Positions 9,880 to 63,492 of a stretch of 64,000 nt of DNA are shown here, piece by piece. The notes under the pieces were generated by a model, which saw nothing but the letters and a program-made list of their open reading frames with translations, did not search any database and was not told the DNA's origin. Where the stretch lies: contig CP048719.1 in the NCBI GenBank assembly GCA_022641835.1, forward strand, positions 186,001 to 250,000. The letters are read 5' to 3'. The DNA is from Petasospora fabianii. Taxonomy: Eukaryota; Ascomycota; Saccharomycetes; Phaffomycetales; Wickerhamomycetaceae. Numbering within the stretch: the stretch's first letter is position 1; every line of letters begins with the position of its first letter. Made by a program: the position numbers and the translations under genes.

Positions 9880-11578
9880 ATGCTCGTACAGCCCAGGTCG
9901 TTACTGCTTTCCTTCCTCTCGGTCGTTCTCGTATGTCCAGCATTTCCCCCCTCATCGTCATTGGCAAGACAAGACTAACACCATACGCACACAGAACCAC
10001 ATCCCACCCACTGCATGGCTCGTGATAGACTTCATATTTGATATCTCTACATTTTGGATTCGCAAGCTTTTCGAGTTCTGGAACAGGAAGAGCCCGACGT
10101 CCATAGCCAAGCAGAAGCTGCTCACGGCAGAGACTTACGAAGAATGGCTGGCTGGGGCATACTACCTTGATAGACTCACCGGGTCAGATTTGTGGAGGCA
10201 TAACTTCAGCAGCACGAAGTACGACTATCGACTTATATCTGAACGACTGAAGGAGTTGAAAGATGCGAGAGAAAATGACGATGTTGAACAGTTGCTTAAA
10301 CTGTTTAGGACGGGTGGCTTTTTGAGAAGCTTTGGTGGTATAGCTGGAAGGGAGTTATACAATCGTTCGTATGCCGGTACGAAGATGCTCATTGAAGATT
10401 ATATCTCAGAAGTACTGCACTGTCTCCATTATCTGGATCAGGCACCCTTCAGTCAGCATCAACTAACCTCAAACCAGCTAAAGCTCGACTTCTTCCACGA
10501 TTCCAGACAGGCATTCGGTTCTACTGCTTTAATCCTACAAGGAGGTTCATTGTTTGGATTATGTCATCTGGGTGTCGTCAAGGGTATGTACTTCAAGGGC
10601 CTGCTACCGAGAATCATCTCGGGTAGCGCTGTTGGGGCCGTTGTTGCATCCCTCATTTGTACTCTGACAAACGAAGAACTTGCAGAGACACTCATGAACA
10701 TTCCTGAATCACTTTCGCAGATTGATAGACTCAACACCGACGTTGATGAGCGCTATGGATCCGTTATTGAAAACGTCGTCAGCAAAGGTTACTCACAGGA
10801 CATACTTGTGTTTATGAAGTATGTCAAGGATCACATCGGAGACCTGACATTCGAAGAGGCATACCTCCAAACCAAGAAGATTCTCAACATCATTGTGCAT
10901 CCGACGGACAGATCAATCCCATCTTTGCTGAACTACGTGACTGCTCCAAACGTTGTAATCTGGTCCGCTATCTACGCATCCATCGGTACCGGTGTCCTCT
11001 CCGACAATGTTTCGCTCTACATCAAGGACCTCACGAATCGGGTCATTCCAATGAAGGCATCCTCTTCTCCTGATTGTGTATTCTTGACTCCACAGAAAGC
11101 TAACGAGAGACATAACGCCGAAAGTCCATACACACGAGTCACCGAGCTTTTCAATGTCAACAATTTTGTCATCTCACTTGCCAGACCATACCTTGCCCCA
11201 CTCATCGTCAATGACATCAAACACAAGACCGGATGGAAGGTCAAGAGAGTGCTCCAGCGCCTATTGGGTCTTGAACTGCAACATCGTGTCGAACTTATGG
11301 ATCGTACAGGTATGCTATTCTCTTTTGTGAAACGACTTGCTGTTGATGAAAAGGCACCAAAGAACGGTAGTGAAGTCACAATCGTGCCAGAGTTGAGGAC
11401 ACTTGTCAGGGACTTCGGCCGGGTGTTCGATGTTCATCGAACACATGAGAACATCCCATATTGGATACTGGTAGGTGAGAGGAGTGTTTGGCCCGTGTTA
11501 CCTATATTATGGACGCGGTGTGCGGTCGAGTTTACGTTAGATGATTTGTTTAATAAGAAGAAGAGAAGACATGTGTAA
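9880..11578 (+). CDS. TGL3: Tgl3-type patatin triacylglycerol lipase, apparently without its catalytic serine (spliced: 9880-9930, 9995-11578)
   Basis: The spliced product is 544 residues. The main frame has no ATG at its beginning, only GTG at 10022. An intron with GTATGT (9931), GACTAAC (9973-9979) and CAG (9992-9994) joins an upstream exon, giving ...VVL-NHIPPTAW..., which aligns with the S. cerevisiae Tgl3 N-terminus (ATLDHIPPFVW). The patatin region (about 195-235) keeps the oxyanion-hole glycines (LQGGSLFG). However, the GxSxG motif reads GSAVG: residue 229, codon GCT at 10628-10630, is Ala where Tgl3 has the catalytic Ser (GSSMG). The HX4D acyltransferase motif reads KGYSQD, with Lys281 replacing His. 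The rest is well conserved, including ESPYTR and ELFNVNNF. Known Tgl3 acts on lipid droplets, degrading triacylglycerol, and stabilises other Tgl proteins. Convergent with ELP6, as in S. cerevisiae. Confidence 0.88.
9931..9994 (+). other. TGL3: Spliceosomal intron of TGL3 (64 bases)
   Basis: The donor is GTATGT, the branch site GACTAAC at 9973-9979, and the acceptor CACACAG ending at 9994. Splicing keeps frame exactly between codon 17 and codon 18 and restores a conserved N-terminus, which strongly supports it. Confidence 0.82.
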
Positions 11579-11601
11579 TGACATTAATGAAATGAGATAA
11601 G

Positions 11602-12384
11602 TTAACGGAAGAAGAGCTTTGTGGTTTGATCACGAGACACCAAGAAAAGATACTCCTTCTCAGTCACCTGTAAGGACTTGAATGGGATTGCTCCACGAGA
11701 TATCGTGAGCGTTCCAGTGACGTCCTTTGCACGACCCGTATCGAGCGGACGTAATGCGATGTTCAGCTTGGACATGTGAGCCAACCGGTTGAGGAACTCA
11801 TTCATCTTGAACTCAGGAAGCTTTTCATTGGCAACCTTGAGAGTGTAGAGTTCCGGGTCTGCTGCAGTAATGATAAATAGTGATGTAGATGCCCTGCATA
11901 GTACTGCAATCTGGTCAAGGAGTTGTGTGGCATTGATGGGCGTAGCGGCGAGCAGGACCTCGATTCCTTCGATAATAAGCACTTTGTGGTTTCTCTTGAA
12001 TGACTTGATTTGTGTGACAATTCCCTCAACTGTCTTCTCTAACGATGCTGGGCTCGATATCTTGGAGAAGAGGTCAGAGAACAGATCGATGAAGTGGAAC
12101 CCTTCACCGGTCTCAACACCGGCCTTCCTGAGGTCCTTCTCGAAGAACTTCTCATTGTGAAGAAACGATATCAAGACAGTATCAGCCACTACATTGGACC
12201 TTCTAGAGGGCTGATCATGGTTGAGATGACATGTACCATAGAGAGCGTTCTCCACTAGGGAGTTGATCAGCCAGCTGGGCGATGTGCCTTGAGTGTGTGT
12301 GACGACACCCAGCAGACGCTCATTCAGTTGCGGAATGATTGAATTGTCGTGGAAGAATGTGAGGTCCTGTTTCTGTGTGGTCAT
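11602..12384 (-). CDS. ELP6: Elongator complex subunit Elp6
   Basis: The 260-residue RecA-like protein matches Elp6 along its length. It has the N-terminal QDLTFFHDNS, the central WLINSLVENALYGTC, and the C-terminal motif TGRAKDVTGTLTISRGAIP with the ending TKLFFR (TKLFYR in S. cerevisiae). Elp6 forms the Elp456 hexameric ring that binds tRNA and supports the Elongator reaction that modifies wobble uridine (mcm5/ncm5). The gene is convergent with TGL3, with a gap of only 23 bases. TGL3 and ELP6 are also convergent neighbours in S. cerevisiae. On the other side it shares a 185-base divergent promoter with ZUO1. Confidence 0.93.
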   Translation of the reverse strand: MTTQKQDLTFFHDNSIIPQLNERLLGVVTHTQGTSPSWLINSLVENALYGTCHLNHDQPSRRSNVVADTVLISFLHNEKFFEKDLRKAGVETGEGFHFIDLFSDLFSKISSPASLEKTVEGIVTQIKSFKRNHKVLIIEGIEVLLAATPINATQLLDQIAVLCRASTSLFIITAADPELYTLKVANEKLPEFKMNEFLNRLAHMSKLNIALRPLDTGRAKDVTGTLTISRGAIPFKSLQVTEKEYLFLVSRDQTTKLFFR

Positions 12385-12500
12385 CTAGCGTGTGTATGGT
12401 CTAAATTTGTGTGTATGTTAAACACAAACTGGGTAGAAGCTGTCACAAGAAGTGTCTCCATCGCCCTCACCGTCTGTTCGCGAAAAGTTGATGGAGGAAC

Positions 12501-12510: not shown

Positions 12511-12569
12511 CAGTACTGAGGGTACTATACTATCTTCACCAAAGATCAAGAAAAGCAACCCACCATAAA

Positions 12570-13859
12570 ATGTCCCTTCCATCCCTCCCAACCAACTTTG
12601 GTTCTGAGAACTTCAAGGCTCACGCAAAGTACACTGCCCCAGTGCGCCGCCCAGTCGAGCCAGTCGGCCGCTACTTCCTCGCCCATGCCTCCCGTGCTCT
12701 CAGAGGCCACACCTGGTCTGAGTACGAGAAGATCGAGGCCGAGAAGAACGTCTCTGTCGTCAGCGAGGCCGACGAGGATGCTGATCTTGGTGACGAGCAG
12801 CAGTCTGAGGAGCTTCTCTCCCACGACCCACGTGACTGGAAGACTGCTGACCTCTACGCCGTGATGGGTATCTCTCATCTCAGATACAAGGCCACCCCTG
12901 ACCAGATCAGACGTGCCCACAGAAAGCAGATTCTCAACCACCACCCAGATAAGAAGGGTGAGAACAACCTTCACGCCGACGGTTTCTTCAAGATCATCCA
13001 GAAGGCTGTCGAGACCTTGCAGGACCCTGTCAAGCGTCAGCAGTACGACTCTGTTGATGAGAACGCTGATGTTGCCCCACCAGCTCCAAAGTCCAAGTAT
13101 GACTTCTTCGAGGCCTGGGGTCCATTCTTCGAGGCTGAAGGTCGTTTCTCCAAGAAGCAGCCAGTCCCATCCCTCGGTACCATTGAGTCTACCAAGGCTG
13201 AGGTTGAGACCTTCTACGACTTCTTCTACAAGTTTGACTCCTGGAGAACCTTTGAGTTCTTGGATGAAGATGTTCCAGATGACTCCTCCAACAGAGACCA
13301 CAAGAGATACGTTGAGCGTAAGAACATTGCTGCTAGAAAGAAAAGAAAAACTGAGGACAACAAGCGTCTCTTGGACCTCGTTGCCCGTGCTTTCAAGGAG
13401 GATCCACGTATGAAGCTCTTCAAGGAGGCTGAGAAGAAGGAGAAGGAGCGTCTTAAGTGGGAGCGTGAGGCTGGTGCCCGTGCTGAGGCCGAGGCCAAGG
13501 CTAAGAAGGAGGCCGAGGAGGCTGCTGCTAAGAAGGCTGCTGAGGAGGCCGCTGCCAACGCTAAAGCTGATGCTAAGAAAGCCAAGGAGGCCGCCAAGTC
13601 TGCTAAGAAGAAGAACAAAAGAGCCATCAGAGGTGCTGCTAAGGACAACGACTACTTTGGTGATGCTTCCCAGGCTGAGGCCATCGATTCTGACATTGGT
13701 CTCTTGATCGAGTCCTTCGATGATATGCAATTGCAGGACGTTGCCACCAAGGTTACCGGTGCTGACGCTGCTACTGCTAAGGCTGCTATTGAGGCTGCTG
13801 CTAAGGAGATTACCGGTGCTGGTAAGCTCCCAGCTTCCGTCTTGAAGTACTTTGTTTAA
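12570..13859 (+). CDS. ZUO1: Zuotin, ribosome-associated Hsp40 (J protein)
   Basis: The 429-residue product has an N-terminal segment, a J domain (about residues 95-165) with the HPD tripeptide in LNHHPDKKG, a zuotin homology region, a highly charged Lys/Glu/Ala-rich middle that binds the ribosome (about 270-360), and a C-terminal helical bundle ending LPASVLKYFV. Zuo1 pairs with Ssz1 to form the ribosome-associated complex, which stimulates Ssb chaperones at the exit tunnel. Length is close to the S. cerevisiae protein (433). Codon use is strongly biased (GCC, AAG, GAG, CGT), as expected for an abundant protein. That bias also leaves a stop-free antisense frame, which I reject. Confidence 0.95.
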   Translation: MSLPSLPTNFGSENFKAHAKYTAPVRRPVEPVGRYFLAHASRALRGHTWSEYEKIEAEKNVSVVSEADEDADLGDEQQSEELLSHDPRDWKTADLYAVMGISHLRYKATPDQIRRAHRKQILNHHPDKKGENNLHADGFFKIIQKAVETLQDPVKRQQYDSVDENADVAPPAPKSKYDFFEAWGPFFEAEGRFSKKQPVPSLGTIESTKAEVETFYDFFYKFDSWRTFEFLDEDVPDDSSNRDHKRYVERKNIAARKKRKTEDNKRLLDLVARAFKEDPRMKLFKEAEKKEKERLKWEREAGARAEAEAKAKKEAEEAAAKKAAEEAAANAKADAKKAKEAAKSAKKKNKRAIRGAAKDNDYFGDASQAEAIDSDIGLLIESFDDMQLQDVATKVTGADAATAKAAIEAAAKEITGAGKLPASVLKYFV

Positions 13860-18970: not shown

Positions 18971-19702
18971 TCAGATGTCGATTTGTGTAAAGTCATCAAC
19001 TAGCTGAAGGTCCTGTTTGTCGTGCTCGCTGATCTCGGCGTTACCGTCCCGAACAGCGACAAGGGAGAACATGCCGGCTTCCATTGCGGCTCTGACTTCT
19101 TTAACATTGTCACTTAAAAACAGCACGTTCTTGCCCTCTTTGTTCAAGTCTTTTAAGATGTTGCTGTAGCTTTCCTTCTCGAATTTGTAACCAGATGTAG
19201 TGATGTCAAAGTATCCTTTCAAGAGGCCGTTCATATCGGTGCTGACACCGTTCACATCAACGTGTCCAAAAAGTAGCTTCTGTGCCTTGACGCTTCCACT
19301 TGAGTATATCAGCACGTCTTTACCCTCAGAATTCCATTTCTTGATGGAGGAGATGGCGTCAGGGTAGAGTGGGGCCTTAATCTCCCCGGAGTCGTATCCT
19401 CCCTGCCACACAAGACCCTGAAGCGACTTGAGCGTTTTCTCTTTGATATCGTTCTTCACAAGGGATTTGATGTGTGCTTCGAGCGTATCTGCATCATTCT
19501 TTGTCTCTTCTGGGAAGTCCACAAGGATGGAGGAGATGGTGGAGTTGGATGCCTGGAGAGGGAACTTCTCCGCTGCCAGGACCGATGGCAGTTTGTTGAG
19601 GAAATAAGGGAAGAGACCCTCTTTGACGAATGTGATGGGGCACACGGTGCCTTCAATGTCCAGCAGGACTGTTGTGATTGTGGAAGGGATCTTGATTGAC
19701 AT
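18971..19702 (-). CDS. UTR4: Enolase-phosphatase E1 (methionine salvage)
   Basis: The 243-residue HAD-superfamily enzyme has motif I LLDIEGTVCPITFV near the N-terminus (nucleophile Asp and the EGT of the MtnC group), motif II IYSSGSVKAQKLLFG and motif III FLSDNVKEVRAAMEAGM. It converts 2,3-diketo-5-methylthiopentyl-1-phosphate to acireductone in two steps (enolisation and dephosphorylation), which recycles methionine from polyamine synthesis. Length fits the family (227 in S. cerevisiae). It converges on YOR1 with a 58-base gap. In S. cerevisiae UTR4 and RAD23 are adjacent; here they are about 6 kb apart. Confidence 0.94.
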   Translation of the reverse strand: MSIKIPSTITTVLLDIEGTVCPITFVKEGLFPYFLNKLPSVLAAEKFPLQASNSTISSILVDFPEETKNDADTLEAHIKSLVKNDIKEKTLKSLQGLVWQGGYDSGEIKAPLYPDAISSIKKWNSEGKDVLIYSSGSVKAQKLLFGHVDVNGVSTDMNGLLKGYFDITTSGYKFEKESYSNILKDLNKEGKNVLFLSDNVKEVRAAMEAGMFSLVAVRDGNAEISEHDKQDLQLVDDFTQIDI

Positions 19703-30600: not shown

Positions 30601-30879
30601 GACATTGGAGATCTGTCTTTCCGTCACGGACTTCATCTTTGGTGGAGATTTGATAGCGATACGTCTGAACAAGACGGCCGAGAATGCGTTGGCGGCATGG
30701 TTGGAACCGTTTGTGGCCTGTTGAGACAGGAACAAGAGCAGAATGTCAACACGGTCTTCAGTGGACCAGACGGTACGCAATGTGTTCTCTGCGTGTGAAC
30801 GCTGCTCATTGTTAGCGGACGAGAGGTTGCTGAGAAGCTCAACCAACGCGGCGTTGATCTCTGGTGTGATGGCAGACAT
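27610..30879 (-). CDS. PSE1: Importin beta-type karyopherin Pse1 (Kap121)
   Basis: The 1089-residue product has the same length as S. cerevisiae Pse1 and opens MSAITPEINAALVELLSNLS. It is a solenoid of HEAT repeats throughout, with an N-terminal importin-beta domain and the characteristic acidic loop (TEDDDEEVEYDSG) near residue 330. A second acidic stretch (about 800-815) follows KDREGEDEYNEEVDDEEGDY. Pse1/Kap121 binds RanGTP and imports ribosomal proteins, transcription factors such as Pho4, and other cargo through the nuclear pore. No introns were seen. It sits between RAD23 and a secreted esterase. In S. cerevisiae it neighbours GAS1; here three genes intervene. Confidence 0.95.
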   Translation of the reverse strand: MSAITPEINAALVELLSNLSSANNEQRSHAENTLRTVWSTEDRVDILLLFLSQQATNGSNHAANAFSAVLFRRIAIKSPPKMKSVTERQISNVNAGVLSEIRSNFLHGFVSPQSNDVRHKLADAIAELAKEDVPGDWNELLPTLFEATKNPDPSFRESAFRIFAANPALFPLEHMEQLLPVYETGFADTEDDVRIAACTAFVGFFQILPKKTWPRVQPLLPSLMNSLPRFLENGKEQALSSVLEALIDLVDTAPKLFKDMFPTIIEFCSAVANNKELDSAARLSALELLTTFSESSPKMCKSNPAYTQAIVVITLSMMTEVCPDDEEAEEWNMADNTEDDDEEVEYDSGRQALDRVALRLGGDALAGPLFQIITQMLGSSQWRDRQAALMALSSAAEGCRDVLITAIPKILDLIIPTLNDSHSRVQYATCNALGQISTDFADVIQRQAGSRIVPALVSKLTNASVPRVQAHAAAALVNFSENATKETLEPYLDDLLTNLLTLLQSPKRYVQEQVLTTIAIVADAAEKKFIKYYDTLMPLLINVLKADMGDENKLLKAKCIECSTLIALAVGKEKFAPHSQELIQLFGALQQSDLQDDDPVKPYLEQGWGRLARIIGKEFLPFLPAVLPPLVEAAKASQDISLLDEEEADEFNQNDDWDVIQLGGKHIAVHTALLDDKAAAIDLIAGYADILKGDFYPYTREITVEIALPALDFYLHDDVRRAAASALPSLLLSSKEATGQKSTNTLELWQLIADKLIKTIGNEPSPDIQYAYFSAFSDCVEIVGENALSAQQLKSFTACTDGTLKEIYQRVKDREGEDEYNEEVDDEEGDYTDEELCDEINKVLSVVIKSNKVSFLEHFRSMVPTVASFINDENVILKLFGLCVAADLIEYTGEHSSAFAELFLQPIHDSLHHSESSIRQAAAYAVGVAAQCAPNSYAEFSISCMEPLFAITQLADARSEQTITSTENACTAISKILMAFNSRVPNFDALVDNWIKTLPVLKDTEAAPFAYRFLSQLIESGHQSVQSNARAVIDSVVQALTYNSIGGKNAEAVAASTKKLLGQLPQSEAMALLQGYPVETQQVIQKWFA

Positions 30880-45700: not shown

Positions 45701-48700
45701 AGAGGCGTCGGAGTGGAAGGAGGGTCTCTCTTGTTCGGCTTACGAACGAACCATCGCCTCTTGCCCTTTCGGAACTGCATTACATCAGCCTCAAAGTCAA
45801 GAGTTTCTTGGCTCTTCTCGAATGGTTCGGGGATCATTGACCCCACGGACATGGCACTGTCTCCGCTAGCTACGTCACGAGGTAATGTATCGAGCTGATC
45901 ATCCTCACGTTCGGATGCTGTTGCTGTGTAGGTAGAACTTACAGCAGATATTTTCCTAGTTGTATCAAACTTGACAGGGTCTTTTTTCAAGGTTCCGTCA
46001 TTTTCTGCCATCTGTCTTGTATCGGCAACGAAACACTCCCATTCCGAAGGAAAAAGATGTTTCAAGTATTCGAGTAAAGACACACGACTGTCCACGCTAT
46101 TTTCCTTGATAATCTCTCTGAGGGAAAGAAGGATTTTCTCTTTATAGTGAGGAATCAACACAGTGAAAGCAGGCATCGCGTCGACACTCATGGGCTCAGG
46201 CATAGGAGTGGACAAAGACTGCGCAAAGAACGAAACCCGTCTCTGTGCTTCAGATTTGGGTGGAAAGAACTCGGATGATTTAAATGTAGCGTCATCATGT
46301 GCAATGAAGAAGTTTGGTGACTTTAATGTGCTCTTACGGGCACCATCATTCTCAGCTGGAGCCTGGTGATACAAGAGCTTTTGAACCATATCAACAGGAA
46401 GAAGATGCTCCCTGTACATTGAGATGATAATGGCGTTCCACACCTGTGAAACCAAGATCTTGGGCTTGTACTTGATTTCCATGTCTGATGATGCAATGAT
46501 CTTCGTGTAGATTCTTTTAGGTAATCTAGAGAAGATGTTCTTCCAAGGGGTCATAATGGAAATGCCCAATGCAAACGACAACCCCATAGAGAAGAAGCAG
46601 TTACAAATAATATACCAAAGATACGTGTCAAGGAAGAACAAAACCAACTCAGTCAAGTATATCAATCCCAAGGTGAGATGTGCTTGATGTCGACAGAGGA
46701 AGGTCCCCAACCAAACATCACCAACACAACGATCCATGCTCATAATCGACAAGACTCGGATTGGGTCACGGATAGAAAGAGTTAAAAAGAAGTAGGACTC
46801 CAGGTACTTAGCAATAAAGATGACCCACCAGAGCAACACTGAGAACCAATAGCTTCTACCTGTGAGTTGAGGAAACGACGCTGTGAATATTTCAGAGGAT
46901 GCGTACCGTTTCTTCTTTCCTTTGCGCTCACCAAAGGCGAACAATTTGGATAATGGACAAAAAGAGAAGTACACACAAGTCAGTAATGCAAATGCGAACT
47001 GTACCCATGCAACCCAAACTGCAGTATTGGAGTGGGTTTCCAAGCCAAAGAATCCCAAGATAAAAACTGTAGGAGCGAAGTTGAGGAAACCAATAATACA
47101 CAACCAGAAGAGCCGTTTAAGCAATTGTGGAGATCCTGGCCAATGCCGTGGGATAAAAGTCCACTCTGAAATAGTCGCAACAATCTGAATTACTGTACAT
47201 AAAAAACCGACCAATGCGATGACTGTCAACCTGACCTGTTGAAGTGGGGGATTGTCCCAGCGTTGATCATAATCTTTGGTGTAGAGAGTGGGAGAGTTGA
47301 AGGTTGTGAAAAGCCAATATGAGGCAAAATGGATGATCCAGATACGATTGAAATTGGTGGCGACATGAAACCATGTCCTTGACTCTTTATATGTCTTGAA
47401 AAAAGCCTTCTCCCAGTTAGCATGGGCTAAGCACTTGTACCTCTCGACAAGCGGAACATCGACCAAGCGCTGATTTCCAGGAAGAATGGTAATCCTTTCA
47501 ATGCCTTCAGGATACCAGAAGAGCTGGTTTACGTCGTCATAGCCAATGATGAGCTTATGGTCAACTTCTTTCTTCATGAGCTTTCCGCTCGGTGTGACAT
47601 CGTAAACTTGAGCTCTCAAGAAGCGGTAAAGAGGCGTGACGATATCGTCCAAAAACAGACCTTCTACAGCACCATCCTCTTTCGCCTCCACCATGGAAGG
47701 ATCGTTTCTCCGTGCTCCACCGACTTCGTCAGGTGGCACTGGAAGTTGCTGAGCCCCACGCATCAGCCTCGTCTTCAACAAGTTTCGATAGTAATCCCGT
47801 GCACACTTAAAAACGAAGCACAAACACTCCGGTAAGAAGCGAACCTGGCTAGCTTCACCCCATATCAAGAGGTACAAAGCAAGATCTTGGACATATTCCC
47901 GATGAGACATCGAGTTCATTCTCACTCTCCACTTCTTATCAGCAATGGGGTGAAGTGCACTTTTATCCACACCATCATATTTGGAGCCGATATCTACAAT
48001 ATTAGCCTCAAAATACATGTCCTGCTCAACAGCTCGGTTCTGTGCGGCTTTGATGTCGATATTCCTCTTCTTGGCAATTTTCTTGTTTCTCTTGTATGCC
48101 TCACCTTGTAACTTCATGTTGGCGAAACCAACCTCCTCATCTAAATCCAATTGGGCAGCGAAATACCATTTCTTGTAGTTTGAGTCATCTCCACCAATGT
48201 AGGATGCGTGAAGCGAGACTAATGCGGCATCTGTAGGCATTCTACTAGCCCTAGAGTCCAATTGAACCATCAAATGATCAAAGATATTTTTGACCGACAG
48301 CTCTTGAAAACCAAACACAAACTTCAAGTCACCAAAAATTTCACGTATCTGCTGAATGGAGAGAACAGACTGAACACTGCTTGACCAGTTCTGATATCGG
48401 TGGTCCTCCTGGTAAATGTTTGCTTCGGCTGGTGTGTGCAATAACTTCATAGCTGTTGACCACCTTATGGGCATTCCTTCCTTGTCAAACGGTCCATCTG
48501 CATTATCAGTTTCAAACCCATTGACTGCATAGTTGTACGGATCGCCCTCACCAGCCTTTGGAAGCGCACGTTCAGCCAGCGCTTGGGCAACACTCTCTAG
48601 AACCTCCCTGGTCTGTGCTTCATCCGTAGGCGGAAGCAGCTCTCTGATGGCCGAGTCAGCGTTCTCGAAAGTATCATCAGCTCGCTCCTCATTTTGAGCG

Positions 48701-48759
48701 CTGATACCTTGCTCGGAATCTCTCGGTCGTGGGTCACAGTGGCCGTTGAATGGAGCCAT
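42775..48759 (-). CDS. FKS3: 1,3-beta-glucan synthase, Fks3 type
   Basis: The 1994-residue GT48 integral membrane protein lines up with Fks1 throughout. It has an N-terminal cytoplasmic part (ASYIGGDDSNYKKWYFAAQ), a first membrane block (about 465-745), a large cytosolic catalytic region (about 750-1410, with GNPILGDGKSDNQNH, YIFSENIGVLGDVAAGKEQTFGT and LHYGHPDFLNA), and a second membrane block to the end. Hot spot 1 reads FLTLSIRDP (658-666), close to Fks1. Hot spot 2 reads NWVTIFIF (1475-1482) instead of DWVRRYTL. A roughly 100-residue Ser/Lys/Pro-rich insertion sits at about 920-1045, where Fks1 has about 23 residues, and the Gln/Tyr-rich N-terminal tail of Fks1 is missing. Position between SCW4/10 and GAS1 matches FKS3 in S. 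cerevisiae, which works in spore-wall assembly. Confidence 0.9.
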   Translation of the reverse strand: MAPFNGHCDPRPRDSEQGISAQNEERADDTFENADSAIRELLPPTDEAQTREVLESVAQALAERALPKAGEGDPYNYAVNGFETDNADGPFDKEGMPIRWSTAMKLLHTPAEANIYQEDHRYQNWSSSVQSVLSIQQIREIFGDLKFVFGFQELSVKNIFDHLMVQLDSRASRMPTDAALVSLHASYIGGDDSNYKKWYFAAQLDLDEEVGFANMKLQGEAYKRNKKIAKKRNIDIKAAQNRAVEQDMYFEANIVDIGSKYDGVDKSALHPIADKKWRVRMNSMSHREYVQDLALYLLIWGEASQVRFLPECLCFVFKCARDYYRNLLKTRLMRGAQQLPVPPDEVGGARRNDPSMVEAKEDGAVEGLFLDDIVTPLYRFLRAQVYDVTPSGKLMKKEVDHKLIIGYDDVNQLFWYPEGIERITILPGNQRLVDVPLVERYKCLAHANWEKAFFKTYKESRTWFHVATNFNRIWIIHFASYWLFTTFNSPTLYTKDYDQRWDNPPLQQVRLTVIALVGFLCTVIQIVATISEWTFIPRHWPGSPQLLKRLFWLCIIGFLNFAPTVFILGFFGLETHSNTAVWVAWVQFAFALLTCVYFSFCPLSKLFAFGERKGKKKRYASSEIFTASFPQLTGRSYWFSVLLWWVIFIAKYLESYFFLTLSIRDPIRVLSIMSMDRCVGDVWLGTFLCRHQAHLTLGLIYLTELVLFFLDTYLWYIICNCFFSMGLSFALGISIMTPWKNIFSRLPKRIYTKIIASSDMEIKYKPKILVSQVWNAIIISMYREHLLPVDMVQKLLYHQAPAENDGARKSTLKSPNFFIAHDDATFKSSEFFPPKSEAQRRVSFFAQSLSTPMPEPMSVDAMPAFTVLIPHYKEKILLSLREIIKENSVDSRVSLLEYLKHLFPSEWECFVADTRQMAENDGTLKKDPVKFDTTRKISAVSSTYTATASEREDDQLDTLPRDVASGDSAMSVGSMIPEPFEKSQETLDFEADVMQFRKGKRRWFVRKPNKRDPPSTPTPLPVGSHEPNTKSVIQLPDEKARLKSYQDLPFSCIGFKDTNEEYVLRTRIWASLRSQTLYRTASGFMNYVRALKLLFRIENPDIVLYHLDNNWALEQDLHAMSTRKFRMVVSMQRLQDFNLDERLDYLFLLRAFPEICVAYISKEMNGDGEPVYYSCLVDGYCKFDNDWNRIPIYKIRLSGNPILGDGKSDNQNHLLIFYRGEYIQVVDSNQDNYLEECMKIRSVLSEFEELDVPPHSPYSPTASLNTSAPVAIVGAREYIFSENIGVLGDVAAGKEQTFGTLFARTLAEIGGKLHYGHPDFLNAIFMTTRGGISKAQRRLHLNEDIFAGMNAMVRGGRIKHCDYYQCGKGRDLGFTSILNFTSKIGSGMGEQLLSREYYYLGTQLPLDRFLSFYYAHPGFHINNLFITLSVQLFMIVLVNLGALKSETIICQYNKDVPYTDLQEPLGCYMIQPVLNWVTIFIFSVFLVFFIAFVPLIIQELTERGLWKALSRFAHHILSLSPFFEVFVCQIYSKSLIVDVMFGDAQYIASGRGFAMHRLPFLELYSTFTLQSIYTGARLFLLLLFASITIWQPALLWFWISLVSMCFAPFMFNPHQFSFQDFFIDYRHFIHWLSRGHVSTHERSWSTYAKRRRGRITGYQRNNSIGTRKARRRDIYLSELVIPTIATMFLLSAYSFVNSQNGVKEVPATNSLLRLVVLVLLPLIADMAIILLIGFFAFVTGQVLPIQRTQLSKGAFLATVAHTLAVLVHLMWFELVWLLEGFSFQRAIVCLICVISINEIMFSFITMFLLGREPVSTSTSNLWWTGLWFWEVTLEDGNHDVPLNVFREFPCKVMEMSQFAMDFTLGHLILFVQLPFALFPLTDRFHTLVLFWMTPNSHGARRPLRMSQRKRRRKQCMRYLVLFSLVFACFTVLLAVPLVMLRQIPDVSSTYVNEYVVFEGLIQPSGQWNNDTGVNATLFANITKGTMPVFKTNAW

Positions 48760-50123: not shown

Positions 50124-51284
50124 ATGTTGTTCTCCAAGCTCTTCACCGCCGCTATGGTCGGCGCTGCCGCCGCTGCCCCTGCTGGCCACGTCCACAACCA
50201 GCACAAGAGAGGTCTTGTCGTTGTCACCGAGACTCAAGTTGTCTACGTCACTGCTGATGTCAACCAGGTTGTTGCTGGTGAGTCTACTACGCAGACATTC
50301 TCCACCCTCAACACCAACTTGGCTTCCCAGTCCTCTCAGTCCACCACTGTGACTTTGCAAGGTCAGGCTGTCGGTGCTTCCACCTACTCTTACTCTGCTC
50401 CAGAGACCACTGGCAACGCTGACACCACCTCTGTCGCTACTGTCCAGACCACTGCTTCTACCAGCTCTTCTTCCACTTCTGCTGCTGCCACCACTACTGA
50501 CTCCTCTTCTGGTGACTTCACTGGTGGCTCCAAGGGTGTCACATACTCTCCATACACCTCCTCTGGTAACTGTAAATCTCTCTCTGAGGTCCAGTCTGAC
50601 TTGGCCAAGTTGACCGACTACGAAATCATCAGATTGTACGGTGTTGACTGTAACCAGGTTGAGAACGTCTTCCAGGCTAAGGCTGACGGTCAGAAGCTCT
50701 TCCTCGGTATCTTCTTCATGGACCAGATTGAGGCTGGTGTTAAGCAGATTGCCTCTGCTGTTGAGTCTTACGGTTCTTGGGACGATGTCTACACCGTCTC
50801 TGTCGGTAACGAGTTGGTCAACGGTGGTGCCGCCTCCGTCTCCCAGGTCGCTGGTTACGTTTCCACCGCCAGATCTGCTTTGAAGTCTGCTGGTTACTCT
50901 GGTCCAGTCGTCTCTGTCGACACACACATTGCTACCATCAACAACCCAGGTCTCTGTGATATCTCTGACTACGTCGCCATCAACGCTCACGCTTACTTCG
51001 ACTACAACACTGAGGCTGCTGACGCTGGTGAGTGGTTGCTCCTCCAGATTCAGAGAGTCTGGACGGCTTGCGGTGGTAGCAAGTCCGTTTTGGTTACCGA
51101 GACCGGTTGGCCACACCAGGGTGACACCTACGGTAAGGCTGTCGCTTCTCCTGAGGCTCAGGCTTCTGCTCTTTCCTCTATCAAGGCTTCTTGTGGTTCT
51201 TCTGCTATCCTTTTCAACGCTTTCGACGACTTGTGGAAGGCTGATGGTGCTCAGAACTGTGAGAAGTACTGGGGTATCTACTAA
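50124..51284 (+). CDS. SCW4: Cell-wall glucanase-like protein, Scw4/Scw10 type (GH17)
   Basis: The 386-residue product has a signal peptide (about 1-19), then a dibasic site HKR near residue 28 that suits Kex2 processing. A Ser/Thr-rich segment (about 70-140) follows, and then a GH17 domain with both catalytic glutamates, in SVGNELVNGG (acid/base) and LVTETGWPHQG (nucleophile), ending EKYWGIY. Scw4 and Scw10 are soluble wall proteins that remodel beta-1,3-glucan. In S. cerevisiae they are a duplicate pair, one in the chromosome VII block and one in the XIII block. Here there is a single gene, consistent with an unduplicated ancestor. Codon use is strongly biased, suggesting high expression. 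Confidence 0.93.
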   Translation: MLFSKLFTAAMVGAAAAAPAGHVHNQHKRGLVVVTETQVVYVTADVNQVVAGESTTQTFSTLNTNLASQSSQSTTVTLQGQAVGASTYSYSAPETTGNADTTSVATVQTTASTSSSSTSAAATTTDSSSGDFTGGSKGVTYSPYTSSGNCKSLSEVQSDLAKLTDYEIIRLYGVDCNQVENVFQAKADGQKLFLGIFFMDQIEAGVKQIASAVESYGSWDDVYTVSVGNELVNGGAASVSQVAGYVSTARSALKSAGYSGPVVSVDTHIATINNPGLCDISDYVAINAHAYFDYNTEAADAGEWLLLQIQRVWTACGGSKSVLVTETGWPHQGDTYGKAVASPEAQASALSSIKASCGSSAILFNAFDDLWKADGAQNCEKYWGIY

Positions 51285-51539: not shown

Positions 51540-52463
51540 TCACTGACCACTCTTCTGTGACATCTCAAACTCCTCTTCCCTCAACTTGGTACTACTCAAC
51601 TTGTTCTGAAAACCATCATCGGCCTCACCGCCAATAACATTGATCACATGGACCCTTAACTCATGCATATCCCTCTCCAGCCTCGTCTTGTTGATGAATT
51701 CGGCACCCTTGACAGTCTCTCTACTGACGACTAAGCCGTCAATGTCCTCGATCACAGCAGTTGGTCCACAAATGTCCTTGATTGGTACTGCGTCGACCTT
51801 AAGTGTGGGTTTGATACGTGCAAGAAATGAGGAGGCGACATGGACACGATAGTCGTAGCTCTGGAGGAATTCGGAATACTTCTTGTTCTTCAGGAGTTCT
51901 TCATCTGTCACGCCGACTATAAGTGTACGTTTTGTGAGAAATGCCGAAGCACTAAGAAGAATCTTGTGGCCATCGTGGAAATGATCGAATGTTCCACCGA
52001 CTGCAGCCACATCGTGTACGGACTCTGAGCTCTCATCTTGATCACGATTTATGGAGGTATTGGTCTCAGAGGCAGATCTCTGAATATTGATAGTCTCAAG
52101 GACGTCCTTGTCTGGGTGGTCGAAATGATCGTAGATATCATCAGAGGTATCAATGATAAGAAGCGTCCAGCCAGGCTCTTTGAGTTCCTTATAGTGATCA
52201 TTGAACAGTACAGACACATTTATCTGGGGCTTCCCAGAAGCCTGAAGTATCTCAGTGGACAATGTGTACGTCTGCGCTAGAACCAGGTCTAGGATGTTAA
52301 GGTGAGTGATCTTGGGCAGAAGGAGTATATCGAGAACAGCATCCTCCGCGAGCTCCTTTGCAGCACGTTCAATAAGGGGCGTGTACGACTTGATGGCAGC
52401 AATGTCACTAATGATTATAAGAGCACTCTTATGTGTCATTGTGATGGTTAATGGTGTAGGCAT
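51540..52463 (-). CDS. CAB4: Pantetheine-phosphate adenylyltransferase Cab4
   Basis: The 307-residue product has a nucleotidyltransferase fold with the signature GGTFDHFHDGHKILLSASAF (HxGH-type motif) at about residues 158-177. FLTKRTLIVGVTDEELLKNK follows. The N-terminal half is the eukaryote-specific extension, as in S. cerevisiae Cab4 (305 residues). It joins ATP to 4'-phosphopantetheine, the fourth step from pantothenate to coenzyme A. An inner ATG (MTHKSALII) nine codons downstream is an alternative start. It is divergent from CWC22 across 203 bases, exactly as these two genes are paired in S. cerevisiae. Confidence 0.94.
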   Translation of the reverse strand: MPTPLTITMTHKSALIIISDIAAIKSYTPLIERAAKELAEDAVLDILLLPKITHLNILDLVLAQTYTLSTEILQASGKPQINVSVLFNDHYKELKEPGWTLLIIDTSDDIYDHFDHPDKDVLETINIQRSASETNTSINRDQDESSESVHDVAAVGGTFDHFHDGHKILLSASAFLTKRTLIVGVTDEELLKNKKYSEFLQSYDYRVHVASSFLARIKPTLKVDAVPIKDICGPTAVIEDIDGLVVSRETVKGAEFINKTRLERDMHELRVHVINVIGGEADDGFQNKLSSTKLREEEFEMSQKSGQ

Positions 52464-52666
52464 TATCTCCTAAAGTTGGGTGGAGAAGATAGCTGATGTG
52501 GTGGACAACCTTCGTTTGCCTTCGCAGCCACAACTTTTTGGTCCGGGGCAACACCACAGAAATTTTTGATAAACAGAGCATTCATACATATACCTTTGTT
52601 AACCTTTTGGACCCGTTTCACGTCACCACGCTGCCAATACGAGGCAACTTCGCTCCAATTACGGTC

Positions 52667-54835
52667 ATGAGTGAACACAGGAGATCACTCACAAGTGCCG
52701 AAGAAGAGTACAAGCGGCTCCAAGAGCTACGGTCTGGTGGAACTTATGTGCCACCTGCAAAGCTTAGAGCGCTTCTCGAGACAATCAACTTTGAGAAGGG
52801 ATCCCAGGAGATGCAAAGAATGGAGTGGGACAACTTAAAAAAGAAAATCAATGGACTCGTGAATAAGGCCAACAAAAGCAACTTGAAGTCGATTGTGGTG
52901 GAGCTGTTCAAGCTCAATCTGAACAGAGGTCTTGGTCTTCTTGTAAGGACCCTCATGAAAGCTCAGAGTCAAGCACTTGGCTTCACTCATGTCTATGCTG
53001 CTTTGGTTGTGATCCTCAATTCTAAGCTACCACAAGTGGGTGAACTTCTGATATCTCGTCTCGTTCTTCAATTCAAAAAGGCCTTCAAAAGAAATAACAA
53101 GGTGCTCTGTCTCTCATCTACTACATTCCTTGCCCATCTCACCAATAATCAGGTGTGTCATGAAATTATTGTGCTGGAGCTTCTTCATCTGCTATTAAAC
53201 AACGCAACTGATGACTCGGTAGATATCTGCTGTGGTATTGTGAAAGTGTCTGGTCAGTACCTCTCTGAAGTCAGTGCCAATGCGATCTCCCAAGTGTTTG
53301 AGAAGATGAGACAAATTCTTCAGGAAGGTAGGGTTGAAAAAAGAACACAGTACATGATCGAAGTTCTTTTCCAAATCAGAAGAGATGGATACAAGGACTT
53401 CCCAGTGGTGGATGAAGAGCTTGACCTTGTTGAGGAAGAGGATCAGATCACCCATAAATTGAGGCTGGATGATAAACTTAAGGCCCAAGACGGTCTCAAT
53501 GTCTTCAAATTTGACCCAGACTACGATCTGCACGAGGCTGAGTATGCTACTGTTAGAAATGAGATTCTTGGAAGAGAAGCTGAAGACGTGGAAGAGTATG
53601 GCGATGTCGAAGTTGAGGAGGATCAAGTGCTGGAGGAGCAAAAAGAAGCCGAAGAGCAAAATGCCGATGGAGGTAAGACGCCGTCCACATTGGAGATCAA
53701 AGATATGACTGATACGAACCTTACAAACTTCAGAAAAACGATTTATCTCATCTTGAAGGGAAGTATGTCGCCGGATGAAGCCGTTCACAAGATATTGAAG
53801 CTTGGCATAAGGCATGAGGACGAGGACAAGGTCGTTGACATGCTCGTAAAAGCATGTTCGCAGGAGAACACATACTCCAAGTACTACGGTGTGACTGGGG
53901 AGAAACTATGTGGTCAAACAAAGTCATGGGCCAGTGCTTTTGCTTTTGTCTTCAGAGAGAACTATGAGACTATTTATAGGCTGGAGTCTAACCCATTGAG
54001 AAACGTATCCAAGTTTTGGGGTCACATGTTGTCGAGTGATGCTCTCGGTTGGGAGGCACTAGATATCATCACGCTCACTGAGACAGATACTTCTAGTGCT
54101 GGTCGTATCTTCATCAAACTCGTGTTCCAAGAGCTGGTTGAGGAGCTCGGTATCCCAGAGCTCAATGAGAGGCTTCAGGAAGACTACATGCAACAACATC
54201 TCAAGGGTCTTTTTCCAACAGAAAATTCAGAGCATCTTCAGTTCTCCATCAACTACTTCACTGCTATTGGTCTCGGTATCCTTACAGAAAGAATGAGAGA
54301 GTCATTGGAGAGATTGAAACAGAAGAGGCTGGAGGAGGATCGTGGTAGGTCCAGATCCAGGTCACGCAGTGGCTCGTTCTCCAGAACAACGTCAAGATCA
54401 AGGTCATCCTCCAGGGGACGTTCATATTCAAGAACACCATCAAGATCAAGATCTTATTCTCGTTCACGCTCATATTCGGACTCGAGATCAAGATCCGGCA
54501 GCTACTCTAGGTCCGGGAGCTACTCCAGGTCGAGAAGCTACTCCAGGTCAAGAAGCTACTCCAGATCCAGAACCTATTCTCGCACACCATCCAAATCACC
54601 TCGTCGTTCTCGCTATTCCAGAACACCATCACCTCGCAGAAACTCTAGATCACCATCATACTCCCGCTCACCACCAAGACGGAACCACTCCCGCTCGCCA
54701 AGTCCACCCCGTGACGTTCCAAGACCAAGAGGTCCCTTGCCAGATCAAAATTCCGCTTATAGGAGCAGTGGTTTTACTCATGGAGGAGGTCGTGCCGGTG
54801 GTTACAACCAAGGTTCGGGCAAATTCCGTCGTTGA
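52667..54835 (+). CDS. CWC22: Spliceosome factor Cwc22 with long RS tail
   Basis: The 722-residue product (from the ATG at 52667; the frame is open further upstream but only through unlikely sequence) has an MIF4G domain (about 50-240; LKSIVVELFKLNLNRGLGLL). An acidic linker (about 285-340), an MA3 domain (about 355-470) and a striking C-terminal Arg/Ser-repeat region (about 559-690) follow. The tail ends in a Gly-rich stretch. Cwc22 joins the activated spliceosome before the first catalytic step and, in animals, hands eIF4A3 to the exon-junction complex. S. cerevisiae Cwc22 (577 residues) lacks such an RS region, whereas fission-yeast and animal forms have one. Confidence 0.93.
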   Translation: MSEHRRSLTSAEEEYKRLQELRSGGTYVPPAKLRALLETINFEKGSQEMQRMEWDNLKKKINGLVNKANKSNLKSIVVELFKLNLNRGLGLLVRTLMKAQSQALGFTHVYAALVVILNSKLPQVGELLISRLVLQFKKAFKRNNKVLCLSSTTFLAHLTNNQVCHEIIVLELLHLLLNNATDDSVDICCGIVKVSGQYLSEVSANAISQVFEKMRQILQEGRVEKRTQYMIEVLFQIRRDGYKDFPVVDEELDLVEEEDQITHKLRLDDKLKAQDGLNVFKFDPDYDLHEAEYATVRNEILGREAEDVEEYGDVEVEEDQVLEEQKEAEEQNADGGKTPSTLEIKDMTDTNLTNFRKTIYLILKGSMSPDEAVHKILKLGIRHEDEDKVVDMLVKACSQENTYSKYYGVTGEKLCGQTKSWASAFAFVFRENYETIYRLESNPLRNVSKFWGHMLSSDALGWEALDIITLTETDTSSAGRIFIKLVFQELVEELGIPELNERLQEDYMQQHLKGLFPTENSEHLQFSINYFTAIGLGILTERMRESLERLKQKRLEEDRGRSRSRSRSGSFSRTTSRSRSSSRGRSYSRTPSRSRSYSRSRSYSDSRSRSGSYSRSGSYSRSRSYSRSRSYSRSRTYSRTPSKSPRRSRYSRTPSPRRNSRSPSYSRSPPRRNHSRSPSPPRDVPRPRGPLPDQNSAYRSSGFTHGGGRAGGYNQGSGKFRR
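54341..54710 (+). repeat. CWC22: RS-dipeptide coding repeat in CWC22
   Basis: About 370 bases encode RS/SRSYSRS-type repeats, including repeated RSRSYS and SYSRS units, followed by SP/RTPS-rich runs. The repeated DNA units may make copy number unstable. Confidence 0.8.
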
Positions 54836-59943: not shown

Positions 59944-62900
59944 ATGACTTTGGGCGACAACGATCTCATTGTCCTCTCAGATGATGACGCGGTGGTTGAA
60001 ACGCCTCCAAGCACTACAACCACCAATGATACACCAGAACAGGAGGCAATCAAGCGTGCTAGAATGACTCAGCACACTAATTTGGACTTCAGCTTCTTCA
60101 AAGATCAAATCCTTCAGCCCATTGATGATGAAGACGTTATTGAAACAGGCTCTTACACATGGGAGATCAAGGATTTCAGAGGTCTAAGGGAGGACAAAGA
60201 ACGCTCCCCAATCTTCACCATCGGTGGTTATGACTTCAACATTCTGCTTTTCCCTAAGGGCAATGCCAATAACAACCTTGGGCTCTACTTGGAGCCAGTT
60301 CCGAAGAAGCACCTTGATGCAGAGACGGGACTTCTGGTTCCAGATGATCCGAACTGGTATGTCTGTGCTCAATTCACGTTGATCATCTCTTCACCGAAGG
60401 ACAGCCGTGCATGCGTTATGAACACTTCACAGCAAAGGTTCAGTAAGAATGCTACTGACTGGGGGTTCTCCAACTTCACGCCAGTATCTACACTCTATGA
60501 AGCTACGAACAGAACGAAACTGCCATTGATGTTTGACAACAAGGTTAACATCACTGCTTACGTTAAAGTTCTCAATGACACTACTGGTGTCCTCTGGCAC
60601 AACTTTTTAGACTACGACTCCAAGAAGGAAACCGGAATGGTTGGCTTTATTAACCAGGCTGCTACTTGCTATCTAAACTCCTTGCTGCAAAACTACTTTT
60701 GGACTAAGGCCTTCCGAAAGGCAGTGTATCAGATCCCAACTGAGGGTGGTGCCGGAACGGCTCCTTACGAGCTCCAGAGGATATTTTACGAATTACAGCG
60801 CTCGGATGTTGCCGTTCAGACCAACAGGTTGACGGACTCGTTTGGTTGGACTTCAGCGGATGCCTTCCAACAGCATGATGTGCAGGAATTGAACAGGGTT
60901 TTGATGGATAAGCTTGAGTCTAGTATGAAGGGCACCTCTGTGGAGAACATGCTGAATGAGACATTCGTGGGCCGCATGAAGAGTTTCATCAAATGTATCA
61001 ATGTCGATTATGAGTCTTCAAGAGAGGAAGAGTTCTGGGATATCCAGTTGAACGTGAAGGGCTCCAAGAACTTGGAAGAGTCTTTTGAGCAGTACATCGA
61101 GATGGAAACCTTAGAAGGCGAGAACAAATACTCTTCCCCCAATGACGGTCTCCAGGATGCAAACAAAGGTGTTATCTTCACTCAGTTCCCTAATGTCTTA
61201 CATCTTCAACTCAAAAGATTCGAGATGGATTGGGAGGATTTCCGCTTGACGAAGATCAATGATCGCCACGAGTTCCCACCAACCATTGACCTTGGCCGCT
61301 TCACTGAGGAAAAGTCCGAAAACATTTACGACCTTCACGGTGTTCTCGTCCATCAGGGTACAATCGAGACCGGTCACTACTACACCATTATCAGACCATC
61401 CACCGAGGATCAATGGTACAGATTTGACGACGATAGAGTGTGGAAAGTCACCAAGTCAGAGGTGTTCAAATCTAACTATGGTTCTGAGGAACTCACACCT
61501 GCTCAGCTGCACACAATGAACACATACAATCAGCAGTTGTATGCCACGCGTCGTGCAACTAGTGCTTACATGTTGGTGTACATCAAGAGATCCGAGGCTG
61601 CTACCATTCTCGCGGATGTTCCAGACTCTGTTGTTCCGAGACACATTGTTGATGAGGTTGAGGCTGAGATTGAGGAAGAAAAGAGACTAGAGCAGGAGGA
61701 GAGAGAAAGGGCATTCAACTTGGATATCAATATCTTCACCGATGATTTGTTCAGGAAGCACCAGGGCTTTGATCTTGCTGCAAATGAACGATTCATGCCC
61801 CCAGAGTTGTTTGAGAACTCTCCAAAGCCAACTAAGATCAGGATGCTGAGAGATGCAAAGTTTTCAGAAATCTATGCGCTGATCCAGGACAAGACTGGTA
61901 TTGCAGCTGACAAGATGAAAATCTGGTCTATGACACATAGACGCAATCATACATTGAGACCAAGCTTCAGACTAGAAGATATGGACGATCTCACACTTCA
62001 GGAGGTATATGATCGTCAATTCTCGAAGAAGCATGCTGTTCTCAACATCTGGATCGAGGAGCCAAGTAAGGATTTGCTCCACAACTCTTCCACCACCATC
62101 AAGCCACCTTCGGAGACTGCGCATGATACCGATATCGAGGTCATCGATGAAAACTTGATTGAATCCCCAGATATGGTATTGTTCATTAAGTACTTTGACG
62201 TTGAGAAGCAAGCTTTGCTTGGACTTGCCCATATCATTGTCAGTGAAGATGATAAGATCGAGACAGTCCTTCCTTCAATTAAGGGCAGTCTTGGTTTGAC
62301 CACATCTGATGAGATCGAAGTGTTCGAAGAGGTGAGTCCAGGCAACGTTGATGTTGTGAAGACTGGCTTGACATTTTATAAAGCTGAGCTTGGTAATGGT
62401 GACATTCTGACCATCCAGAAGAAGCCAGTCAGAGACCAGGAGATCAATGCTGAATTGCTGCCATTCTACAAGAAGGCTGATGACTTCTACAAGTTCTTGG
62501 CAACTAGACGTTTAATTACCATCAAGCCACTTGAGAGCCACAATTCTGATGATGATTTTGTCGTGGTGGACTCTGATGCTGATTCAGTCGAGGATGAAGG
62601 GAAATTCACAATGTGGATCTCCACCCATGCCTCATACGAAGAGTTGGCCACAAGAATCGGAACCTATATCAAGAAAGATCCATCATATTTGAGGGTGTTT
62701 GTCAACTACAGTGGTAACAGAGTGCAGATGCGCTCAAACTTATTTTTGGGTAACGTCCTTCCAAAGCAGTCATGGACCACCTCGTCACCTGTGTTTGAGT
62801 ATGAGCTCTTGAACATTCCATTTGCTGAACTTGAGTCCATGACATCCTACCAGATCAATTGGATCAACAATAGCTACTTGCACTACACCGAACATGATAT

Positions 62901-63492
62901 TTTGATGAGCTCAGTTGGTAAGACTGTTGGTGATCTTATTGAGAAACTTCAGTCAAAGGTTGGATTCAAGGATGAGGACAAGAAGAATGTAATCATATGG
63001 ATTAATAGTGGCTCGAGATTCACAACTATTGCTGGTCATCAACATGAGATTGAGGCATTGGAGGACAAGGACAAGATCTACGCCGCTGTTCTTCCTGAGG
63101 AGGCTGAGATCTTGCGTGATGTTTATGAACGAGACCCTCCACTTGAGATCTCTGAGCTCAAGAAATTGCCAAATTTGGTTCCGGTGATTCAATTCAACAG
63201 AGATCCAAGAAACATGCATGGTATCTCATTCATCTTTGCTCTATATCCAAATGAAAATTTGAAGAGCATGAGAGACAGAATGCACAAGAAATTCGGTTTG
63301 GGCGATTCTGAGTTTGCTAAGGTGAAGGTGTGTCTGTGGGATCCAGAACTGAGAAATCCAAGGGAGCTGGAAGATGAGAATCTCATTCCATATGATGAAA
63401 TAGCTGACTCCGAGTTCTTATGTCTCAACTTGGTGGATCGTACTAGTCGTACCGGTGGTAACCATCAGGGCGGAGGTATCTCAATCCGTTGA
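59944..63492 (+). CDS. UBP15: Ubiquitin-specific protease Ubp15 (USP7-type)
   Basis: The 1182-residue product has an N-terminal MATH/TRAF-like domain (about 45-190; SYTWEIKDFRGLREDKERSP). The peptidase C19 domain (about 230-560) has catalytic Cys242 in NQAATCYLNSLLQN, and His478 in IETGHYYTII with Asp in RFDDDRVWKV. A long C-terminal region of ubiquitin-like folds follows, as in human USP7 (HAUSP). S. cerevisiae Ubp15 (1230 residues) removes ubiquitin from substrates, including the cyclin Clb5, and affects cell-cycle entry and endocytosis. All catalytic residues are present. The order SCW - ... - UBP15 matches the S. cerevisiae chromosome XIII block, although its strand is reversed. Confidence 0.95.
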   Translation: MTLGDNDLIVLSDDDAVVETPPSTTTTNDTPEQEAIKRARMTQHTNLDFSFFKDQILQPIDDEDVIETGSYTWEIKDFRGLREDKERSPIFTIGGYDFNILLFPKGNANNNLGLYLEPVPKKHLDAETGLLVPDDPNWYVCAQFTLIISSPKDSRACVMNTSQQRFSKNATDWGFSNFTPVSTLYEATNRTKLPLMFDNKVNITAYVKVLNDTTGVLWHNFLDYDSKKETGMVGFINQAATCYLNSLLQNYFWTKAFRKAVYQIPTEGGAGTAPYELQRIFYELQRSDVAVQTNRLTDSFGWTSADAFQQHDVQELNRVLMDKLESSMKGTSVENMLNETFVGRMKSFIKCINVDYESSREEEFWDIQLNVKGSKNLEESFEQYIEMETLEGENKYSSPNDGLQDANKGVIFTQFPNVLHLQLKRFEMDWEDFRLTKINDRHEFPPTIDLGRFTEEKSENIYDLHGVLVHQGTIETGHYYTIIRPSTEDQWYRFDDDRVWKVTKSEVFKSNYGSEELTPAQLHTMNTYNQQLYATRRATSAYMLVYIKRSEAATILADVPDSVVPRHIVDEVEAEIEEEKRLEQEERERAFNLDINIFTDDLFRKHQGFDLAANERFMPPELFENSPKPTKIRMLRDAKFSEIYALIQDKTGIAADKMKIWSMTHRRNHTLRPSFRLEDMDDLTLQEVYDRQFSKKHAVLNIWIEEPSKDLLHNSSTTIKPPSETAHDTDIEVIDENLIESPDMVLFIKYFDVEKQALLGLAHIIVSEDDKIETVLPSIKGSLGLTTSDEIEVFEEVSPGNVDVVKTGLTFYKAELGNGDILTIQKKPVRDQEINAELLPFYKKADDFYKFLATRRLITIKPLESHNSDDDFVVVDSDADSVEDEGKFTMWISTHASYEELATRIGTYIKKDPSYLRVFVNYSGNRVQMRSNLFLGNVLPKQSWTTSSPVFEYELLNIPFAELESMTSYQINWINNSYLHYTEHDILMSSVGKTVGDLIEKLQSKVGFKDEDKKNVIIWINSGSRFTTIAGHQHEIEALEDKDKIYAAVLPEEAEILRDVYERDPPLEISELKKLPNLVPVIQFNRDPRNMHGISFIFALYPNENLKSMRDRMHKKFGLGDSEFAKVKVCLWDPELRNPRELEDENLIPYDEIADSEFLCLNLVDRTSRTGGNHQGGGISIR

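What the first reader, a model, noticed from the sequence alone, without database searches (positions are those of the whole stretch)
9880..63492. Unduplicated ancestral block matching two paralogous S. cerevisiae segments
Seen here: TGL3, ELP6, ZUO1, YOR1, PSE1, PXR1, GAS1 (x2), FKS3, SCW4/10, CAB4, CWC22 and UBP15. From memory of S. cerevisiae names, seven of these come from YMR304-YMR313 (UBP15, SCW10, FKS3, GAS1, PSE1, ELP6, TGL3), in the same relative order, and six from YGR277-YGR285 (CAB4, CWC22, SCW4, PXR1, YOR1, ZUO1). The single SCW gene stands where the SCW4/SCW10 duplicates tie the two segments together. This looks like a double-conserved-synteny block from before genome duplication, with insertions (esterase, CBS-PB1, UTR4-TGL4-KPR-NSE6-RAD23) and small inversions (CAB4-CWC22 as a pair, PSE1, UBP15).
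Basis: partly seen in the sequence, partly recalled or inferred. Interest (0 to 1): 0.72.

Follow-up and report, generated by a model that had tools for sequence, protein, structure and literature searches.

The report
Unduplicated yeast synteny block
One stretch of chromosome in a yeast outside the baker's-yeast family carries, nearly in order, genes that baker's yeast keeps split between two chromosomes; the pattern is real but of a well-known kind.

Summary
The gene content is real. 12 distinct genes in one 53-kb stretch have S. cerevisiae counterparts in YMR304-313 (7) or YGR277-285 (6); SCW counts in both. S. cerevisiae locus names are recalled. Order is conserved: YMR 7 of 7 monotone, YGR 6 genes with one adjacent swap; 7 of 1,000,000 joint shuffles do as well. 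The two sets interleave, as expected for one ancestral segment duplicated and then differentially lost. The yeast reads CTG as Leu and has a complex I gene: outside CUG-Ser yeasts and Saccharomycetaceae, most likely Phaffomycetales (inference). A second undoubled locus on C1 (FKS1-like, GAS2-like, TIM21) shows the same pattern.

Corrections: 'NSE6' is unsupported; FKS3 is a label by position only, since C4 holds another FKS; SCW is single locally, not genome-wide; the 'insertion' holds UTR4 and RAD23, and RAD7 lies nearby, genes of another known duplicated region (COR/ARC, recalled).

Verdict: ordinary double-conserved synteny, low interest. Boldest reading left open: FKS, GH72 and GH17 wall genes cluster twice, perhaps an ancient duplicated cluster.

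The parts
3214..4998 (-). RAD7-type protein (YJR052W, recalled); left of the block, COR region gene
   Evidence: Pfam rhp7 treble clef domain
10385..11578 (+). TGL3-like patatin lipase (YMR313C, recalled); the open frame goes on upstream of this ATG
   Evidence: Pfam patatin; upstream frame
11602..12384 (-). ELP6 (YMR312W, recalled)
   Evidence: Pfam ELP6; PDB Elongator protein 6, E 2e-26
12570..13859 (+). ZUO1 (YGR285C, recalled)
   Evidence: PDB zuotin, 543 bits
14695..18912 (+). YOR1-type ABC transporter (YGR281W, recalled); strand flipped
   Evidence: Pfam ABC_membrane and ABC_tran; strand
18971..19702 (-). UTR4 (YEL038W, recalled), ARC region gene
   Evidence: NCBIfam acireductone synthase, 199 bits over cut-off 128
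25761..26747 (-). RAD23 (YEL037C, recalled), ARC region gene; UBL part lies in upstream exons up to about 27117
   Evidence: Pfam UBA and XPC-binding
27610..30879 (-). PSE1 (YMR308C, recalled); strand flipped
   Evidence: PDB importin beta-3 full length
35945..36814 (+). PXR1-type G-patch protein (YGR280C, recalled)
   Evidence: Pfam G-patch
37003..38658 (-). GAS1-like GH72+X8, first tandem copy (YMR307W, recalled)
40072..41718 (-). GAS1-like GH72+X8, second tandem copy, 63% identical to the first
42775..48759 (-). FKS glucan synthase, FKS3 by position (YMR306W, recalled)
50124..51284 (+). SCW4/SCW10-like GH17 protein (YMR305C and YGR279C, recalled)
51540..52463 (-). CAB4-type phosphopantetheine adenylyltransferase (YGR277C, recalled); flipped
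52496..54835 (+). CWC22 (YGR278W, recalled); flipped
59944..63492 (+). UBP15, MATH/USP7-type protease (YMR304W, recalled); flipped

Best explanation
The stretch is an undoubled chromosomal segment in a yeast whose lineage split off before the whole-genome duplication of the S. cerevisiae lineage. In that lineage the homologous segment was duplicated and one copy or the other of most genes was lost, leaving UBP15-SCW10-FKS3-GAS1-PSE1-ELP6-TGL3 on chromosome XIII and CAB4-CWC22-SCW4-PXR1-YOR1-ZUO1 on chromosome VII, with SCW4/SCW10 the one pair kept among these genes. In the window's lineage the segment stayed single but gained small inversions, a tandem GAS1 duplication, and genes moved in or out. 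Shown here: content, order, interleaving, complex I gene, CTG read as Leu, a second locus of the same pattern. Inferred: Phaffomycetales membership, FKS3 and SCW orthology, and the S. cerevisiae side (recalled gene order).
For: Gene identities; order and content tests; interleaving in 7 runs; complex I 51-kDa gene; CTG aligned with Leu at 10 of the 13 PSE1 codons visible in the printed alignment, of 15 in the gene, none with Ser; undoubled FKS1-like/GAS2-like/TIM21 locus on C1; single matches for TIM21, SURF4/ERV29 and one eIF3c/NIP1 gene (two exonic matches side by side). PMC12711049 (passages) reports gene order kept around centromeres between Phaffomycetales and the reconstructed ancestor.
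Against: Strands agree for only 7 of 12. NIP1 lies on C3, ERV29 on C2, a BGL2-like gene 80 kb away, so the block is incomplete; the YGR283C/YMR310C family was not found, though the same search also missed RPL26. Three FKS genes and several SCW-like genes leave orthology of the anchors to position. PMC5499181 (passages) says nearly all traces of synteny vanish between distinct yeast subgroups. Locus names are recalled.
Confidence: 0.88

Rival explanations
1. The core GAS1-GAS1-FKS-SCW stays together because linkage of cell-wall genes is selected, not only because nothing broke it.
For: GH72+X8, FKS and GH17 genes stand side by side here and again within 60 kb on C1; FKS1-GAS2 and FKS3-GAS1-SCW10 adjacencies in S. 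cerevisiae (recalled).
Against: Most block genes (ELP6, ZUO1, PSE1, CWC22, UBP15) have no wall function (recalled), so shared ancestry is needed anyway. The chance figure of 0.0007 used thresholds chosen afterwards. The C4 FKS has no GH72 or GH17 match on its contig.
Confidence: 0.08
2. Two unrelated segments, homologous to the chromosome XIII and VII regions, were joined in this lineage.
For: Both sets lie in one 53-kb stretch.
Against: The sets interleave in 7 runs among 11 genes, and one SCW gene stands where both segments have one.
Confidence: 0.02
3. The genome itself descends from the duplication and lost the sister segment.
For: Three FKS and six GH72 genes.
Against: Complex I gene present; the members of both S. 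cerevisiae segments sit together in one segment here; TIM21 and SURF4 give single matches.
Confidence: 0.01
4. Chance, helped by fitting familiar names.
For: Locus names are recalled and several gene names are class-level.
Against: Order and content tests; five genes have firm matches by sequence and all five belong to the two segments by recall.
Confidence: 0.01

Closest known systems
Double-conserved-synteny blocks of the yeast whole-genome duplication (Wolfe and Shields 1997, Kellis 2004, Dietrich 2004: recalled; described in passages of PMC5499181)
   Same: One region of a non-duplicated genome matches two S. cerevisiae segments, interleaved, with a retained duplicate pair as anchor.
   Different: The best known cases are within Saccharomycetaceae; this genome appears to lie outside it, and the block is more broken up by inversions and by genes of other origin.
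Conserved gene order between Phaffomycetales and the reconstructed pre-duplication ancestor (PMC12711049, passages)
   Same: Local order kept over about 208 Myr, with small inversions and insertions.
   Different: That work concerns centromere neighbourhoods; this block was not checked against them.
COR/ARC duplicated region of S. cerevisiae (CYC1-OSM1-RAD7 and ANP1-RAD23-CYC7; recalled)
   Same: RAD7, UTR4 and RAD23 lie within 23.5 kb in the window.
   Different: Cytochrome c is on C2; none of 7 ANP1-family matches is on C5. A paper search for the gene set found 0 papers.

Membership tests
Double-conserved-synteny block | One region matches two S. cerevisiae segments | tested here: met
   12 distinct genes, 7 and 6 per segment with SCW shared; S. 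cerevisiae locus names recalled
Double-conserved-synteny block | Gene order kept within each segment | tested here: met
   P 2/5040 and 12/720; joint 7 of 1,000,000 shuffles
Double-conserved-synteny block | Members of the two segments interleave | tested here: met
   7 runs among 11 genes; 2 runs would mark a simple join
Double-conserved-synteny block | Gene orientation kept | tested here: not met
   7 of 12 agree, near the half expected by chance; not a strict requirement, since small inversions are common
Double-conserved-synteny block | A retained duplicate pair maps to one gene here (SCW4/SCW10) | tested here: inconclusive
   One SCW gene at the expected place, but other SCW-like genes on C1 and C7; no S. 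cerevisiae SCW sequence at hand
Double-conserved-synteny block | Host lineage did not undergo the duplication | tested here: inconclusive
   Complex I gene present, CTG read as Leu, second undoubled locus; no species tree could be built
Double-conserved-synteny block | Reciprocal best hits with S. cerevisiae and order in other non-duplicated yeasts | not testable with these tools
   No yeast genome other than the window's own was available
COR/ARC region remnant | RAD7, RAD23 and UTR4 linked with CYC, OSM1 and ANP1 | tested here: inconclusive
   RAD7, UTR4, RAD23 linked; cytochrome c on C2; 0 of 7 ANP1-family matches on C5; OSM1 not sought

The most novel reading that the evidence does not exclude
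FKS, X8-bearing GH72 and SCW-like GH17 genes formed a cell-wall cluster that was duplicated as a unit before this lineage and Saccharomycetaceae split, giving the FKS3-GAS1-SCW10 locus (window) and the FKS1-GAS2-(SCW-like) locus (C1), and both have been held together since.
Probability: 0.2. Interest if true: 0.4.

Novelty: new member of a known kind. Interest (0 to 1): 0.2.

Why it matters
It adds a data point for ancestral yeast gene order and shows that such linkage survives outside Saccharomycetaceae, but the principle is decades old (recalled). The repeated FKS-GH72-GH17 neighbourhood is the one part that could raise a new testable question: how wall-synthesis genes came to be linked.

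Tried and rejected
Paper searches for the locus names of the two segments gave 0, 3 and 1 papers (listings seen, none opened), and for FKS3-GAS1-SCW10 3 papers (listing only); none is described there as giving the block. COR/ARC gene set: 0 papers. FKS1-GAS2-TIM21-SCW10: 0 papers. Gordon 2009 (PMC2675101), main text searched for SCW4, SCW10, TGL3, ZUO1: no occurrence (nothing else of it read). RPL26 as a landmark for the C1 locus: no match in the genome, which shows that this search can miss a gene that any yeast must have, so its negatives are weak. Species: Cyberlindnera fabianii (12.36 Mb, 44.4% G+C, intron-rich; PMC4125763 whole text; PMC12194250 passages) was considered for its size and introns, but the 224 kb of C5 held here has 46.5% G+C, so the species is left open. 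FKS3 literature: PMC12715860 passages gave function, no gene order. The second non-FKS1 copy on C4 was compared with PDB (1808 bits to GSC2) and with its paralogues, which does not settle which is FKS3. Flanks: of the ORFs listed, 28 were scanned by Pfam (10 right, 18 left); I recognised no further member of the two segments among them.

Full report
What is there. The window is C5:186001-250000 of a 12.34-Mb, 16-contig genome. ORFs were listed and identified by Pfam, NCBIfam (8 of them) and PDB sequence search (8 window proteins). In window order the block genes are TGL3, ELP6, ZUO1, YOR1, PSE1, PXR1, GAS1a, GAS1b, FKS, SCW, CAB4, CWC22, UBP15. Firm by sequence: ELP6, ZUO1, PSE1, CWC22, UBP15 as the MATH/USP7-type protease. 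The NSE6 label for 24143-25606 has no support.

Is it more than chance? S. cerevisiae locus names are recalled; no tool here holds that genome, and paper searches supplied no table. With them the YMR genes run 313, 312, 308, 307, 306, 305, 304 (exact P 2/5040) and the YGR genes 285, 281, 280, 279, 277, 278 (12/720). Jointly one discordant pair of 36 was reached by 7 of 1,000,000 shuffles (the tandem GAS copies count once, SCW in both sets). Sets of 24 random genes in 5,500 placed at most 6 in their best two 10-gene windows in 20,000 trials, against 12 here. The two sets alternate in 7 runs among 11 genes, as expected for one ancestral segment with differential loss after duplication; two joined segments would give 2.

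What organism. PSE1 has 15 CTG codons; 13 fall in the printed part of the alignment with importin beta-3: 10 align with Leu, one each with Ile, Cys and Lys, none with Ser or Ala. A complex I 51-kDa gene is present; Saccharomycetaceae lack complex I (recalled). Phaffomycetales is my best guess, since a block of this length is shared with S. cerevisiae. PMC12711049 (passages) puts that split at about 208 Myr and shows order kept around centromeres; PMC5499181 (passages) says that nearly all synteny vanishes between distinct yeast subgroups, which argues against expecting such a block in a distant group. No tree was built and the species is left open.

Second locus. The genome has three FKS, six GH72 and five GH17 matches, four over the cut-off. 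On C1 a GH72 protein scores 539 bits to S. cerevisiae Gas2 and 417 to the other PDB GH72, the reverse of the window's GAS1a (474 and 545). Its matched stretch lies 0.9 kb from the only TIM21 match and 19 kb from the FKS match. In S. cerevisiae (recalled) FKS1 neighbours GAS2 and its duplicate FKS2 neighbours TIM21, so this is a second undoubled locus of the same pattern. It suggests that the window FKS is not the FKS1/2 orthologue. C4 holds a further FKS. The three are 47-55% identical in the aligned pieces, and only position assigns FKS3 to the window.

Missing and extra genes. NIP1 is on C3, ERV29 on C2, a BGL2-like GH17 80 kb to the left on C5. The YGR283C/YMR310C family was not found, but the same search missed RPL26. 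GLC8 was not sought. The 'insertion' between YOR1 and PSE1 contains UTR4 and RAD23, neighbours in S. cerevisiae (YEL038W, YEL037C, recalled), and RAD7 (YJR052W, recalled) lies 5 kb left of the block; by recall these belong to the COR/ARC duplicated region. So the window seems to hold remnants of two ancestral neighbourhoods. Against this, cytochrome c is on C2 and 0 of 7 ANP1-family matches are on C5.

Verdict. The boldest reading left open is an ancient duplicated FKS-GH72-GH17 wall cluster: the C1 FKS has a GH72 within 20 kb and a GH17 within 40 kb, which random placement of the non-window genes gives with probability 0.0007; the thresholds were chosen after seeing the data, and GH72 alone within 20 kb has probability 0.026. 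The C4 FKS shows no such neighbour.

Noticed in passing
26748-27117: The ubiquitin-like part of RAD23 lies upstream of the listed ORF in two further exons, with GTAAGT donors, a TACTAAC branch motif and AG acceptors; S. cerevisiae RAD23 has no intron (recalled).
   Followed up: partly
9861-10385: The open frame of the TGL3-like gene goes on upstream of its first ATG for about 175 codons without another in-frame ATG, so the start is missing, in another exon or in another frame.
   Followed up: partly
923-2161; also L032:4897-6315 and L032:8101-9027: Three neighbouring genes on one strand with near-identical or similar secreted N-termini; the window copy has a Flocculin type 3 repeat. Looks like a local family of wall proteins.
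   Followed up: no
42775-48759: The window FKS is 1994 aa and holds about 100 residues more than the C1 copy between its N-terminal and catalytic parts.
   Followed up: no
33441-35234: CBS-repeat and PB1 protein, of a kind I recall from fission yeast and filamentous fungi but not from S. cerevisiae.
   Followed up: no
24143-25606: 487-aa ORF without a family in Pfam or NCBIfam and without a convincing PDB match.
   Followed up: partly
L025 and L029-L030 (left flank): TFIIA large subunit, lipoyl synthase and a metacaspase-like ORF (recognised by eye) lie in the left flank; TOA1, LIP5 and MCA1 are near one another on S. cerevisiae chromosome XV (recalled), possibly another conserved neighbourhood.
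   Followed up: no
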